Source: Acinetobacter sp. SAAs474 (GTDB taxonomy: Bacteria; Pseudomonadota; Gammaproteobacteria; Pseudomonadales; Moraxellaceae). From it: a DNA stretch of 64,000 nt. The notes under the pieces are model-generated. The model worked only from the letters and a program-made list of their open reading frames with translations. It did no database searches and was not told where the DNA came from. Positions 54,925 to 63,056 of this stretch are shown one piece after another (the first letter of the stretch is position 1; each line of letters opens with the position of its first letter). Where the stretch lies: assembly GCF_032823475.1 (NCBI RefSeq), contig NZ_CP127915.1, positions 1,798,001 through 1,862,000 of the forward strand, read 5' to 3'. Position numbers and translations under genes: made by a program.

Positions 54925-55073
54925 CATCTTTGTCATCTTTGTCATCTTTGTCATCTTTGTCATCTTTGTCATCTTTGTCATCTTTGTCATCTTTGTCATC
55001 TTTGTCATCTTTGTCATCTTTGTCATCTTTGTCATCTTTGTCATCTTTGTCATCTTTGCCATCTTTGCCATCT
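54925..55073. repeat. 9-bp minisatellite, 16 units
   Basis: Fourteen perfect tandem copies of CATCTTTGT are followed by two of CATCTTTGC and a partial unit. The tract is a multiple of three bases and is open in several frames, but no convincing start or ribosome site precedes any of them. It probably changes length by slippage and lies in the gap after dld. Confidence 0.95.
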
Positions 55074-55675: not shown

Positions 55676-57346
55676 ATGGACATGGAAAACACAACAACAA
55701 AAATATATACCGATAAAGTACTGGCAATCAGTAGTTTGGCGTTTGTATTTCTTATGGTCGCTGGATTAGCAATTTATCCAGCGGCATCGATTGAATTTGC
55801 TGCAAAGTTAATGGAGTGGGTGACTCAAGTTTTTACTACACCAGTACTATTATTTACTTTGCTATCTATCATATTTACTTTAACAATTGCATTTAGCAAA
55901 TATGGCAAGATTAAGCTCGGTGAGGGAAAACCAGAATATAGTACACCGTCATGGATTTTTATGTTTATTTTATCTGGATTTGGTTCTTCATGTTTATATT
56001 GGGGATTTCTAGATTGGGCATATTATTATCAAACACCGGGTCTAAGTTTAGCACCATCATCTGCTGAAGCACTAAAATTTAGTGTTGCATACTCATTTTT
56101 TCATAATGGCGTCAGTGCATGGTCTATCTATGCTTTAGCTGCGATATCGCTTTGTTATAGTTATCATGTTAGAAAAAATAAGGGATTGAGTTTAGCATCA
56201 ATTATTGAAGCGATTACTGGATTTAAGGCAACAGGGCCAGTGGGACGTTTTGTTGATGTTTTATTTTTACTGTGTATGTTTGGTGCACTGACGATTTCAC
56301 TGGTATTGACTGCGGTAACATTTACAAAAATTTTATCAATATTGACGGGTATTCCGGATTCATTTACCACAAAGGTTGTGGTGATTTTATCTGTTGCTGT
56401 GCTATTTGCATTGAGTTCATATGTAGGTATGGATAAAGGAATGCAGCGTCTTAGTCATATTGTTTGTATTGGTGTTGTTGCACTTGCTGCATATGTACTT
56501 TTCTTAGGACCAACTACTTTTATTGCCAATAATTCAATCATGAGCTTAGGTCTAATGGGCTCTAATTTTCTTGAAATGAGTTTATTTACCGATCCAATGG
56601 GCGATGGCAAATTTACACGAGAATGGACAGTATTTTATTGGCTATGGTGGATTTCTTATGCACCAGGTGTTGCATTATTTGTCACACGTGTATCCAAAGG
56701 TCGAACCATTAAGGAAGTCATTCTGGCCATGATTTTAGGCGGCAGTTTTGGCATCTGGTGTGTATATGGTGCCTTTGAAAGCTATAGTGTTTATAGTTTT
56801 ATACATGGACTGGTTGATGTTCCACAAATATTAAGTCAACAAGGTGGTGAAGTTGCAATTGGCCAATTATTAAGTCAATTACCTGCTGGTCAATGGGTGA
56901 TGTGGGCTTTTTTAATCATCATGGTGGTATTTTTAGCAGCACATATGGATGCTGTTGGTTATGCGGTAACAGCAACATGTACTCGTGGCTTGGAAGAGGG
57001 TAAAGATCCTTCCCCGAATGCGCGTTTATTTTGGTGCATTATGTTGACTTTAGTCCCAATTGCCATGATCTTTTCAAAAGCACCTTTGGAAACCATGAAA
57101 ACGGCAACCATTGTGACGGCATTGCCTTTTATTGTCATTATTTTGATTCAAACTTATGGCTTTGTAAAATGGCTTATTGAAGATTATTCAAAGATTCCTG
57201 CACATATTATTGAGCAACAAAATACAGAAGTCGCATCTGATTCATCTCTCGTTCATGTCGATATAGATCCCCCTTTGAATACACCTCAAGTATCGCGGCT
57301 TAACTTGGTGGATAAAAATGGTATTTATAAGAGGGACTCAATATGA
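55676..57346 (+). CDS. BCCT-family transporter, paralogue of the carnitine importer
   Basis: This 556-residue transporter is closely similar to the one at 12806 along its whole length, for example WTVFYWLWWISYAPGVALFV, TRVSKGRTIKEV and the shared FLDWAYYYQTPGL. It differs mainly at the ends: the C-terminal tail is longer and divergent. It begins a second BCCT-hydrolase-cntA module in the same order as the first. Either ATG 55676 or 55682 could be the start; no strong ribosome site is seen. The substrate may be carnitine or another quaternary amine. Confidence 0.85.
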   Translation: MDMENTTTKIYTDKVLAISSLAFVFLMVAGLAIYPAASIEFAAKLMEWVTQVFTTPVLLFTLLSIIFTLTIAFSKYGKIKLGEGKPEYSTPSWIFMFILSGFGSSCLYWGFLDWAYYYQTPGLSLAPSSAEALKFSVAYSFFHNGVSAWSIYALAAISLCYSYHVRKNKGLSLASIIEAITGFKATGPVGRFVDVLFLLCMFGALTISLVLTAVTFTKILSILTGIPDSFTTKVVVILSVAVLFALSSYVGMDKGMQRLSHIVCIGVVALAAYVLFLGPTTFIANNSIMSLGLMGSNFLEMSLFTDPMGDGKFTREWTVFYWLWWISYAPGVALFVTRVSKGRTIKEVILAMILGGSFGIWCVYGAFESYSVYSFIHGLVDVPQILSQQGGEVAIGQLLSQLPAGQWVMWAFLIIMVVFLAAHMDAVGYAVTATCTRGLEEGKDPSPNARLFWCIMLTLVPIAMIFSKAPLETMKTATIVTALPFIVIILIQTYGFVKWLIEDYSKIPAHIIEQQNTEVASDSSLVHVDIDPPLNTPQVSRLNLVDKNGIYKRDSI

Positions 57347-58305
57347 CGATACAGTTTGATCAGCAAAAATATCAACTGAGTGAAGCAATGCAACAGTTTG
57401 TGTATTGGCATAGTGTATATGTTGCAGCAGATAGCGAAATGGATTCAATACGTGCAGCATATGATCAGCTTTGTGTATTGTATACGCCAGAGCGTAATGA
57501 AAATATTGAAATTGTTGATCATGTGGTGATTACAAGCACAGTGGCTATTCCTATACGAATTTATTATCCAAAATCGTCTACAAGACCACAACATGGCTGG
57601 CCATGTGTCATGTATTTACATGGTGGTGGCTGGATGTTGGGTGGTTTAGATTCTCATGAGTTTTTGCTAAGAAGTATGTGTGAAGATTTAAATGTCGCAG
57701 TACTGAGTGTTGATTATCGTCTGGCACCAGAACATCGATTTCCCGCTGCATACCTAGATAGTGAAGCCGTTTATTTATGGCTAAAAGCACAAGCGACAAG
57801 TTGGTATATAGATCCATCAAAGATTATTGTTGCTGGAGATAGTGCAGGCGGAAATTTGGCTGCAGCACTTGCGATACAGTTACAACATATGGATATTCAA
57901 GCGCAAGGTTTGGTTTTGATTTACCCTGTATTATGCACCAATCGGCATCGGGATCAAAATCTTTAATATGCAGATGCCCCTTTGCTTTCACTACAGGATA
58001 TTGAATATTTTTACAATCAATATGCACCACATCCAAATGATGATCTTGATGTGAGATTAGCACCGCTCGTGGCGACTGATCTAGCAAACATGCCACCAAG
58101 TTTTATTGCTGTTGCTGAATATGATCCCTTATGTCACGAAGGGCAGATTTTTGCCGCAAAACTAGATCAAGCAGGTGTAAATACCACCTTATATATTGCA
58201 CAAGGATTACTGCATGGTGGCTTAAAAGTATTTCACCAGAGTGAAGAAGCACAATACCTATATCAAAAGATCAAACAATCAATTCAAAACATGCTGTTGA
58301 GTTAA
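57343..58305 (+). pseudogene. Alpha/beta hydrolase with in-frame stop codon
   Basis: A frame of 320 codons is interrupted only by TAA at 57964-57966 (codon 208). On either side the protein is well kept: YLHGGGWMLGG, the nucleophile Ser167 in VAGDSAGGNLAAAL before the stop, and AEYDPLCHEG and His291 in GLLHGGLK after it. The first part alone would have the Ser but lack the Asp and His of the triad. It is a paralogue of the gene at 14440, and its start overlaps the transporter stop by four bases. A fresh nonsense mutation is the simplest reading; readthrough or sequencing error are alternatives. Confidence 0.8.
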
Positions 58306-59856: not shown

Positions 59857-60969
59857 ATGGAACAACTTAATCCTTCAGACTTAAAAGCCATTTTACATTC
59901 TAAACGTGCCAATATTTATTATCTTGAGCATGCTAGAGTGATGCAAAAAGATGGTCGTGTTTTATATCTAACCGAAGCAAAAAATGAAAATCAATATTGG
60001 AATATTCCGATTGCTAATACCACAGTAATTATGCTTGGTACAGGAACTTCAATTACCCAAGCCGCTATGCGTATGCTGGCCAGTGCAGGTGTATTGGTTG
60101 GTTTTTGTGGCGGTGGTGGCACGCCATTATTTATGGGCTGTGAAATTGAATGGATGACACCACAAAGTGAATATCGGCCAACAGAATATATGCAAGGCTG
60201 GATGCAATTTTGGTTTGATGAACAACAGCGTTTAGCGGTTGCCAAACAATTTCAGCTTGCCAGAATTGAGTTTATTGAAAAAGTTTGGAGTAAAGATCGG
60301 GATTTAAAAGCATATGGTTTTTATATAGATGATTTGGATATACATCATGCTTTAGATGGATTTGCAAAAAAGATTTCTCACTTCACTAAAGTCGGAGATT
60401 TATTACTTGCAGAAGCAGTAATGACAAAACAGCTTTATAAAATTGCTGCAACCCATACAGCGCTTAAAGATTTTAGCCGTAACCCAGAACAAGGTGATTT
60501 GGCTAATGACTTTTTAAATCACGGCAATTATCTTGCCTATGGACTCGCTGCAACCACACTTTGGGTACTTGGTATCCCGCATGGTTTTGCTGTGATGCAT
60601 GGCAAAACACGTCGTGGTGCTTTGGTATTTGATGTAGCGGACCTAATTAAAGATGCCGTGGTTTTACCCTATGCCTTTATTTGTGCTAAAGAAAAAATGA
60701 CTGAGCAAGAATTCCGTCAACAAATCTTACAAAAATTTACCGAGCATAGGTGCAGCTTAGAAAATGTAAAAGAAAGAATTAGACGCATTAAATCCGTTCA
60801 CTGCCTCATAGGCAGCTTAGAAAGTGTCGCTTCCATATCCTGTCCTGTATGCATTGTTCACTGCCTCATAGGCAGCTTAGAAATTTGCAAAAGGGTACAA
60901 CGGCCCAGCGTACGCGTTCACTGCCTCATAGGCAGCTTAGAAAAACAACAGATGGATCGGTTGACTTAA
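59857..60969 (+). CDS. cas1: Type I-F Cas1, C-terminally truncated and fused into the CRISPR array
   Basis: Cas1 is the integrase that inserts new spacers. Residues 1-299 are a typical I-F Cas1: LKAILHSKRANIYYLEHARV, IPIANTTVIMLGTGTSITQA, GVLVGFCGGGGTPLF, and the metal ligands Glu186, His248 (VMHGKTRRG), Asp259 and Asp262. The native sequence stops at about Cys299 (base 60753), where the DNA becomes the 3' part of a CRISPR repeat. The frame then runs through three repeats, adding VHCLIGSLE three times, to a stop at 60967. Native family members have roughly 20-25 more residues. cas2-3 and csy1-4, which normally follow, are absent. Confidence 0.9.
   Translation: MEQLNPSDLKAILHSKRANIYYLEHARVMQKDGRVLYLTEAKNENQYWNIPIANTTVIMLGTGTSITQAAMRMLASAGVLVGFCGGGGTPLFMGCEIEWMTPQSEYRPTEYMQGWMQFWFDEQQRLAVAKQFQLARIEFIEKVWSKDRDLKAYGFYIDDLDIHHALDGFAKKISHFTKVGDLLLAEAVMTKQLYKIAATHTALKDFSRNPEQGDLANDFLNHGNYLAYGLAATTLWVLGIPHGFAVMHGKTRRGALVFDVADLIKDAVVLPYAFICAKEKMTEQEFRQQILQKFTEHRCSLENVKERIRRIKSVHCLIGSLESVASISCPVCIVHCLIGSLEICKRVQRPSVRVHCLIGSLEKQQMDRLT
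60752..60763 (+). repeat. Partial CRISPR repeat at the cas1 junction
   Basis: GCAGCTTAGAAA is the last 12 bases of the CRISPR repeat. It is followed by a normal 32-base spacer and then the first full repeat at 60796, exactly in phase with the array. The preceding CATAGGT comes from cas1 and resembles the repeat's own CATAG, suggesting microhomology at the break. Confidence 0.85.
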
Positions 60970-62864
60970 CAACAAGTTCACTGCCTCATAGGCAGCTTAG
61001 AAAACCAACAATTGATGGATCAGTGGATTTCACTAGTTCACTGCCTCATAGGCAGCTTAGAAATGTTGATGAAAAGAAATGGCCGATGCCTGCCCGTTCA
61101 CTGCCTCATAGGCAGCTTAGAAAATTGATAAACACGGCAACTTTACAACCATGATGTTCACTGCCTCATAGGCAGCTTAGAAATTGGGATGACGGATCAT
61201 GCGGGTTTACGCTTGGTTCACTGCCTCATAGGCAGCTTAGAAAACTTCAAGGATCTGGTGATCAAAACTTTGCCAGTTCACTGCCTCATAGGCAGCTTAG
61301 AAATTACCGCCTGACATACTTACTATGTTTCTTGTGTTCACTGCCTCATAGGCAGCTTAGAAATGATGCAATCCAATCTTGAACTATAGAGAGTGGTTCA
61401 CTGCCGCATAGGCAGCTTAGAAATCTAGGCCCATTTCTACAAGCAATAGATTGATGTTCACTGCCTCATAGGCAGCTTAGAAATCTGTGTGCAGGGAAAG
61501 ATGCACCTAGTAGAGGTTCACTGCCTCATAGGCAGCTTAGAAAGATATTTATAATGATATTCAAATTATTAATACGTTCACTGCCTCATAGGCAGCTTAG
61601 AAATTGGGATGACGGATCATGCGGGTTTACGCTTGGTTCACTGCCTCATAGGCAGCTTAGAAAACTTCAAGGATCTGGTGATCAAAACTTTGCCAGTTCA
61701 CTGCCTCATAGGCAGCTTAGAAAGATATTTATAATGATATTCAAATTATTAATACGTTCACTGCCTCATAGGCAGCTTAGAAAGTATGGTAAGCGTACTT
61801 TTGATGTGACTTTTGGTTCACTGCCACATAGGCAGCTTAGAAAACGACTAGCTGATTCTAATGTTATATAAAGTTGTTCACTGCCACATAGGCAGCTTAG
61901 AAAGTAAAAATCTATGCGTCATAGAAGACGATGTGGTTCACTGCCTCATAGGCAGCTTAGAAATTAACAATTAGATAGATCGCATCATGAATCAGGTTCA
62001 CTGCCTCATAGGCAGCTTAGAAATTTTTAGTCAAGTATGGATGTGATTCGCACGGGTTCACTGCCTCATAGGCAGCTTAGAAAGTGACCGATGTAAATCA
62101 CGCTCTGCTCGATCAGTTCACTGCCTCATAGGCAGCTTAGAAATCAGTCAATCATGCGTACCAAAGATGAAGTTGGTTCACTGCCTCATAGGCAGCTTAG
62201 AAATTTCAGTTTTGCTTCTTTCTCAAAAAAGGATAGTTCACTGCCTCATAGGCAGCTTAGAAAACCATCCGACAGCTTTACATTACTACCTTCTGGTTCA
62301 CTGCCTCATAGGCAGCTTAGAAACATCCCAAATATCAGCATCGCAGCATCACGTTGTTCACTGCCTCATAGGCAGCTTAGAAAGCCTTTAGATTTGACAG
62401 GTGGGAAAAATCAGAGTTCACTGCCTCATAGGCAGCTTAGAAAACAGAACGTATTCAGCGTTGGTCGTCAATTGTGTTCACTGCCTCATAGGCAGCTTAG
62501 AAAATTTTTCGCTCATAATCGAGTTTAAGTTCTTCTGTTCACTGCCTCATAGGCAGCTTAGAAACGCACGTTGTGCTTGTCCTCCTTCAGAGGTACAGCG
62601 TTCACTGCCTCATAGGCAGCTTAGAAAAGAAACTGATTGCACGAAATACACCAGCTAATGTTCACTGCCACATAGGCAGCTTAGAAATAAAGACGGCATC
62701 GTGATGAATTTTAGACAGTGTTCACTGCCACATAGGCAGCTTAGAAAACCAGAATTTGGATTACATAAGTCAGGATATTGTTCACTGCCACATAGGCAGC
62801 TTAGAAACATTGTTTAGCCCCAACTTTAGCTCTCGCATCGTTCACTGCCATTATAGGCAGCTTA
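60796..62864 (+). CRISPR. Type I-F CRISPR array, 34 full repeats plus a degenerate last one
   Basis: Repeats are 28 bases (GTTCACTGCC-TCATA-GGCAGCTTAGAAA), with a CTGCC/GGCAG stem. Twenty-nine start every 60 bases from 60796 to 62476, then at 62537, 62600, 62660, 62720, 62780, with a degenerate repeat at 62840. Spacers are 32 bases, except 33 at 62504 and 35 at 62565. Repeat position 11 varies: G at 61396, A at 61816, 61876, 62660, 62720 and 62780. The decayed last repeat marks the trailer end, so the leader should be at the left, where cas1 now abuts. Including the spacer before 60796, 35 spacers are kept. Confidence 0.98.
61184..61755 (+). repeat. Internal spacer duplications in the array
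   Basis: The spacers at 61184 and 61604 are identical, as are those at 61244 and 61664, and those at 61544 and 61724. The order is A-B-C-D-E-F-G-A-B-G. This fits a tandem duplication of A to G followed by loss of C to F from the second copy, through recombination between repeats. Confidence 0.95.
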
Positions 62865-63056
62865 TCATATTGTATTTATAGTTTATTTTTTTAATGATAA
62901 TCAATCAGTGATTGGTTTTTATGGCGATATATTTTAATTTTTTAACGCTATAAAGATGTTTAGCCAGCGTGTAATTTTGTTTATTCAATGTTAATTATGA
63001 ATTAAGTTAATCTTAATTCATGTAGGCTTTATCTCTATCAATAAAGGTCTAGATAA
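62865..63056 (+). other. Array trailer and promoter region of the dioxygenase gene
   Basis: These A/T-rich bases follow the degenerate last repeat. No further repeat is seen. AAAGG at 63043-63047 is the likely ribosome site for the next gene. It is the trailer, not the leader, judged from repeat decay. Confidence 0.5.

What the first reader, a model, noticed from the sequence alone, without database searches (positions are those of the whole stretch)
60738..60969. Cas1 truncated by direct fusion into a CRISPR array: a one-step loss of the I-F effector and leader
In type I-F loci the order is cas1, cas2-3, csy1-4, leader, array. Here cas1 runs in frame into the 3' half of a repeat, followed by an exact 32-base spacer and a regular array. 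CATAGG is shared by the cas1 side and the repeat, so one deletion by microhomology removed about 8-9 kb, including cas2-3, csy1-4 and the leader. What is left is an integrase with all four metal ligands but no C-terminal tail, and an array that can only be transcribed by readthrough from cas1. The array might still serve a second I-F system in trans.
Basis: partly seen in the sequence, partly recalled or inferred. Interest (0 to 1): 0.78.

Follow-up and report, generated by a model that had tools for sequence, protein, structure and literature searches.

The report
Deletion scar of a CRISPR-Cas locus
In this Acinetobacter genome a bacterial immune locus has lost its whole cutting machinery, leaving a clipped cas1 gene joined straight to the stored phage memories, and the same kind of scar turned up at several other places in the genus.

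Summary
Confirmed: cas1 runs natively to codon 299 (60753), then in phase into the last 12 bases of a type I-F repeat, an exact 32-base spacer and an array of 35 spacers. No leader, cas2-3 or effector gene lies between. The genome (99.99% complete) gives no match for Cas3, Csy3 or Csy4 and holds one I-F array, so nothing in trans was found. Corrections: CATAGG is not the join (TG stands between it and CAGC; only GC is shared), and the lost Cas1 end is not a spare tail (three residues invariant in 34 of 34 intact homologues aligned). Intact relatives put the loss at about 5.8 kb (I-F2) or 7.4-8.3 kb (I-F1, one 9.1), plus unknown spacers. Not unique: of 175 Acinetobacter genomes 14 carry a cas1 stub, 10 of them joined to repeat-spacer DNA, at nine junctions and eight or more loci; one has an intact sister locus with both flanks matching. 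Genus-wide searches showed no Cas3 or Csy4 stub of that kind; Csy1-3 were not searched genus-wide. Best reading: a recent deletion in an ordinary I-F locus, a memory without effector. Why the effector goes as a block is open.

The parts
59857..60753 (+). cas1 (type I-F), native codons 1-299, truncated
   Evidence: Pfam Cas_Cas1 E 1.1e-13; PDB Cas1 chains E down to 1.4e-110; native to codon 299 against intact homologues
60752..60763 (+). last 12 bases of an I-F repeat; the GC at 60752-60753 is shared by cas1 codon 299 and the repeat (the join)
60764..60795 (+). first spacer, exactly 32 bases
60796..62868 (+). I-F array: 34 canonical 28-base repeats and a degenerate terminal repeat (62840-62868); 35 spacers in all with the first, 32 distinct (8=15, 9=16, 14=17)
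59857..60969 (+). read-through ORF, 370 aa: 299 Cas1 residues plus 71 coded by repeats and spacers

Best explanation
[quoted passage not shown] One deletion, or a few with the same net result, joined cas1 codon 299 to the 3' end of a repeat inside the array. It removed cas2-3, the effector genes, the leader and an unknown number of recent spacers. What remains is a Cas1 without its conserved C-terminal block and without its Cas2-3 partner, so very probably unable to integrate spacers, and an array whose repeats can still form the hairpin but which has no Cas6f, no interference complex and no leader. Shown: the anatomy, the absence of Cas3, Csy3 and Csy4 matches from the genome, and recurrence of the same kind of scar. 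Inferred: illegitimate end joining with few shared bases, recency, and loss of function. The array is a stored memory that could act only if an I-F effector were acquired again.
For: Exact anatomy. No Csy3, Csy4, Cas3 or leader match and no second array in the genome. Intact relatives keep cas1 - cas2-3 - effector - conserved leader - array. Ten of 14 stub-bearing Acinetobacter genomes have the stub joined to repeat-spacer DNA, at nine different junctions. Before/after pair: scars L067/L068 match the intact I-F2 locus L080 over about 3.1 kb upstream (94-96%) and 1.87 kb downstream (91-94%), with about 11.6 kb of L080 missing. The window's cas1 stub has no stop or frameshift and no visible relaxation (median pN/pS 0.101 against 0.078-0.107 for the 18 intact genes compared), and its repeats are nearly uniform, so the event looks recent.
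Against: No sequencing reads could be inspected, so an assembly collapse is not formally excluded. No fetched intact locus shares the window's own flanks, so its before state was not seen. The cas1 tree does not say whether an I-F1 or I-F2 effector was lost. Cas7fv, Cas5fv, Csy1 and Csy2 were not searched for one by one in this genome.
Confidence: 0.88

Rival explanations
1. Assembly collapse: the cas genes are present but were dropped between cas1 and the array.
For: CRISPR arrays are repetitive, and no reads were available here.
Against: Csy3, Csy4 and Cas3 give no match anywhere in the 99.99% complete assembly. The join is inside a 3.3 Mb contig. Like scars exist in other species, one with an intact sister locus.
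Confidence: 0.05
2. A live minimal arrangement: the array is kept on purpose behind cas1 and used with an effector supplied in trans, for example by I-F plasmids that circulate in Acinetobacter.
For: Repeats are near uniform and differ at two positions of the loop region from those of an I-F2 plasmid (L009); cas1 shows no visible relaxation.
Against: No effector match in this genome. Of the nine other genomes with array-joined stubs, eight keep at most four recognisable repeats and one, G022, eleven, which looks like decay and not upkeep. The leader is gone.
Confidence: 0.06
3. Anti-cas memory, as proposed for orphan I-F arrays of E. coli: a spacer against cas genes drove their loss or now bars their return.
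For: Proposed for E. coli and Salmonella (passages of PMC2886076 and PMC3630108). The AT-rich spacer 14 (=17) matches 19 of 20 bases in two Ignatzschineria loci downstream of cas1 at E 0.007 for one spacer, which over 35 spacers is near chance.
Against: 35 of 35 spacers tested against about 232 kb of intact Acinetobacter I-F cas DNA from 29 loci: best ungapped matches 18-23 of about 32, mean 21.1; shuffled spacers 19-24, mean 20.8. The lost leader-side spacers cannot be tested.
Confidence: 0.05
4. Deletion anchored at the array and run through the operon by the system's own Cas2-3 during self-targeting, rather than plain illegitimate recombination.
For: In the array-joined scars no cas gene other than the cas1 stub was recognised in the stretches fetched; I-F self-targeting does cause large deletions (PMC3630108 passages).
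Against: No self-match above chance for the remaining spacers in the rest of the 64 kb window (best 22 of 32); the rest of the genome was not tested. In the passages read the mapped deletions cover the targeted island; deletion of cas genes after self-cas targeting is mentioned there as a theory.
Confidence: 0.08

Closest known systems
[quoted passage not shown]
   Same: Cas1 up to 92% identical in protein, same repeat family, same gene order as inferred ancestor
   Different: No cas2-3, effector, leader or Cas1 C-terminus
A. baumannii Naval-82 partial I-Fb locus (PMC4338279, passages read)
   Same: Internal deletion of a type I-F operon in Acinetobacter
   Different: There the loss runs from cas3 into csy3, and the counts in the tree legend imply that csy4 is kept; here the join is cas1 to array and no effector gene was found
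Orphan and degraded CRISPR loci of Escherichia, Shigella and Salmonella (PMC2886076, passages read)
   Same: Arrays left after total or partial cas loss, with cas pseudogenes in some
   Different: The type I-F orphan arrays there hold cas-matching spacers; none was found here. No cas1-array fusion is described in the passages read

Membership tests
[quoted passage not shown]
   truncated at codon 299
[quoted passage not shown]
   0 matches in the own genome
[quoted passage not shown]
   0 matches for PF09615 and PF09618. Csy1, Csy2 and the I-F2 proteins Cas7fv and Cas5fv were not searched for on their own in this genome; the Cas6f and Cas3 searches do detect I-F2 loci
[quoted passage not shown]
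   Leader alike in six of six intact loci printed; a 25-base pattern from it has no match in the own genome at up to 2 mismatches
[quoted passage not shown]
   (33 of 35 spacers are 32 bases, one 33, one 35); hairpin -8.2 kcal/mol
Orphan array with anti-cas spacers | At least one spacer that matches I-F cas genes | tested here: not met
   0 of 35 beyond shuffled controls
Degraded CRISPR-Cas locus (deletion remnant) | Remnant of a cas gene next to an array, with the rest of the operon gone and intact homologues elsewhere | tested here: met
Degraded CRISPR-Cas locus (deletion remnant) | No crRNA or interference activity | not testable with these tools
   Needs RNA-seq and a phage or plasmid assay

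The most novel reading that the evidence does not exclude
In Acinetobacter the loss of type I-F systems is not random decay but a directed, all-or-none route: viable deletions run from inside (or upstream of) cas1 into the array and take the whole effector at once, because partial loss is selected against. One candidate cause is a CRISPR-regulated toxin: creTA-like repeats lie between cas1 and cas3, or between cas3 and the effector genes, in 15 of 42 loci, with similar gaps in two more, and a cell that loses the effector but keeps the toxin would die. Against it: the one before/after pair (L080 to L067/L068) shows no such gap in the intact locus, and at least three partial operons exist (L047, L198, L199).
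Probability: 0.2. Interest if true: 0.68.

Novelty: new member of a known kind. Interest (0 to 1): 0.42.

Why it matters
How bacteria lose adaptive immunity is usually inferred from absence. Here a set of scars in different states of decay, with the window the best preserved one seen, records such losses with near base-exact endpoints in one genus, with an intact sister locus in one case. That makes it testable whether I-F loss is random deletion or is shaped by addiction modules or self-targeting.

Tried and rejected
CATAGG microhomology: rejected by two extra bases. Hot spot by repeat-like sequence at the cas1 3' end: the window and G059 break within about ten bases of each other, but that stretch reaches the gene's top repeat-likeness in only 2 of 27 intact genes (L009, L084), and the two junctions differ. 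Anti-cas spacers: not supported (the first spacer was cut 3 bases short, whole). Spacer origin: six phage records with weak matches, the best (E 3e-4) being repeat-like DNA in a cas1-cas3 gap and not a protospacer; 31 plasmid records, the strong ones other arrays; 4 of 35 spacers scanned as exact 22-mers in IMG/VR, 0 hits. Promoter scan: 11 sites against 10.3 expected, uninformative. Lost subtype by cas1 tree: unresolved, I-F1 and I-F2 are interleaved. Ancestral site by the downstream gene: 11 other genomes match, seven at 48-53% identity, none listed near a cas1 match. Scars outside the genus: in 369 class genomes (own included) three stubs lie inside contigs (G377, G481, G283) and none of the three is joined to repeats; G240, G277 and G480 end at contig edges; G494 has a broken cas1 with an array about 9 kb on and was not taken further. 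creTA as the general cause: weakened by L080. E. coli comparison: one orphan array with no cas match in 28 kb, not pursued.

Full report
What is there. cas1 starts at 59857 and is a clear Cas1. It is native through Arg298-Cys299 (60748-60753). The last 12 bases of a type I-F repeat (60752-60763), a 32-base spacer (60764-60795) and a regular array to 62868 follow directly. The array has 34 canonical repeats, a degenerate last repeat that marks the trailer end, and 35 spacers of which 32 are distinct. The ORF runs on to 60969, giving 71 array-coded residues.

The join. The repeat reads CATAGGCAGC but the window reads CATAGGTGCAGC. The TGC is the cysteine codon of cas1 (most intact genes printed have TGT or TGC there), so the bases shared at the join are GC. 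The scars whose array side can be read have overlaps of about one to four bases, by eye. That fits illegitimate joining, which is an inference.

What was lost. In intact Acinetobacter relatives the distance from cas1 codon 298 to the first repeat is 5.75-5.80 kb in I-F2 (I-Fv) loci and 7.4-8.3 kb in I-F1 loci, with one at about 9.1 kb (L086) (for loci with the second repeat type the distance is worked out from the positions printed there; loci without a detected array, L047 and L073 with damaged genes, and L084 and L094 with a repeat between cas1 and cas3 are left out). The cas1 tree mixes both subtypes around the window's gene, so the subtype lost is unknown. The leader, alike in six of six intact loci printed, has no match in this genome by a 25-base pattern at up to 2 mismatches. 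Csy3, Csy4 and Cas3 have no match in this genome; Csy1, Csy2, Cas7fv and Cas5fv were not searched singly. A loose repeat pattern finds this array plus four scattered sites with 3 mismatches. So the suggestion that the array serves a second system in trans finds no support in this assembly.

State of the remnant. The four putative ligands (E186, H248, D259, D262; roles recalled) lie in columns invariant in 35 of 35 sequences, window included. The lost part holds M303, F304 and K308, invariant in 34 of 34 intact homologues from several genera (34 chosen out of 77 usable ones), and L300, D301 and V307, nearly so. The truncated protein is therefore probably not a working integrase, and it lacks Cas2-3. 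cas1 shows no visible relaxation (median pN/pS 0.101; 18 intact genes 0.078-0.107), which with the near-uniform repeats points to a recent event. Spacers match cas genes no better than shuffled spacers (35 of 35 tested), and no convincing phage was found (4 of 35 in IMG/VR).

Recurrence. A cas1 search of 175 Acinetobacter genomes, this one included, gave 83 with a match. Fourteen carry a cas1 stub in a stretch that could be read: own, G001, G018, G022, G029, G059, G072, G080, G108, G111, G113, G125, G126, G137 (G029 and G080 also have a full cas1 of a more distant type). I set aside G130 (contig ends in cas1), and G088 and one copy in G146 (frameshifted but otherwise complete loci). In 10 of 14 the stub is joined directly to repeat-spacer sequence: own, G001, G018, G022, G059, G108, G111, G113, G125, G126. 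In G022 the repeat is of the other Acinetobacter type, as in syntenic intact relatives, and about 7.5 kb lies between that repeat and the rest of its array. G137 has about 2 kb of other DNA and then one repeat; G029, G072 and G080 show no repeat next to the stub. G125 and G126 share both flanks and are taken as one event, as are the stubs of G029 and G072, which share upstream DNA; G108 and G111 share flanks but differ in junction, so one could be a later step of the other. That gives nine junctions at eight or more loci. Stub ends lie at cas1 nucleotides of about 90, 112, 149, 203, 336, 344, 580, 893 and 896-900 (those of G113 and G108 less exactly).

A before and after. Scars L067 (G125) and L068 (G126) align with the intact I-F2 locus L080 over about 3.1 kb upstream (94-96%) and 1.87 kb downstream (91-94%); about 11.6 kb of L080 is replaced by some 70 bases holding one repeat. 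This shows the deletion in a case other than the window. The window's flanks matched none of the loci compared.

Are the endpoints random? A genus-wide search with the I-F1 Cas3 showed no cas3 stub standing for the operon; short matches belong to I-F2 loci with long open frames, to contig edges, or to loci with other damage such as G017. Genus-wide Csy4 matches reach at least profile position 174 of 181 except G168 (1-159) and a frameshifted copy in G146; two have one stop. Csy1, Csy2 and Csy3 were not searched genus-wide. Fourteen repeat-bearing stretches fetched away from known cas loci had no cas similarity (L185-L197 and L201). Partial operons do exist: L047 (csy1-3 not detected), L198 (cas1 gone, cas3 start damaged) and L199 (only cas6f left). 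If left ends were uniform over a 6.7-8.4 kb operon, nine of nine in the 0.96 kb of cas1 would have a chance of about 3e-9 to 3e-8. I do not lean on that number: the set was found through cas1, decay and selection act afterwards, and the events may be fewer than nine. It does suggest that whole-effector loss is favoured. creTA-like repeats in 15 of 42 loci offer one reason, but the one intact sister of a scar (L080) shows none.

Comparison with print. Degraded and orphan type I-F loci are known: partial deletion in A. baumannii Naval-82 (passages of PMC4338279), total and partial cas loss and anti-cas spacers in Escherichia and Salmonella (passages of PMC2886076 and PMC3630108), orphan arrays in the Acb complex (passages of PMC11035748). 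I did not see cas1-array fusion scars described in these passages or in the listings of searches; the library is open-licence only and most papers were seen as listings. I file the finding as a new member of a known kind, degraded CRISPR-Cas loci, with the recurrence as its interesting part.

Noticed in passing
L044, L053, L081, L084, L090, L094 (cas1-cas3 gap): I-F loci of other Acinetobacter carry a creTA-like module between cas1 and cas3: degenerate repeats about 26 bases apart and, in the five printed (not L090), a small ORF upstream (short hydrophobic peptide, or about 75 aa in L081 and L094), read by eye. The published Acinetobacter creTA sits between cas3 and csy1 (PMC10097628 passages).
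   Followed up: partly
L209 (CAKLQF020000007.1, 174 kb, called Acinetobacter phage MD-2021a): A record filed as phage has annotated I-F cas1 and CRISPR helicase genes with repeat-like sequence between them; probably a bacterial contig, or else a phage with a type I-F system.
   Followed up: no
window 54925-55073: A 9-base tandem repeat (CATCTTTGT, 16.6 copies, 99% matches) inside a short ORF coding (VIF)n; looks like a slippage locus.
   Followed up: no
window 57343-58305: An esterase-like gene (judged by eye) appears split into two ORFs (207 aa and 107 aa), perhaps a frameshift or pseudogene.
   Followed up: no
L200 (G049:C2): A second I-F1-type operon with csy1-4 whose Cas3 match starts at residue 104-108, lacking the N-terminal Cas2 part; the only cas1 match of that genome is on another contig: perhaps an interference-only I-F locus.
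   Followed up: no
window 61184-61755: Spacer duplications inside the array (8/9 repeated as 15/16; 14 repeated as 17), a sign of repeat recombination.
   Followed up: partly
L062 and L063: cas1 stubs at loci with no shared flanks end after the same nucleotide (149), one before foreign DNA and one before a repeat; chance or a weak hot spot.
   Followed up: no
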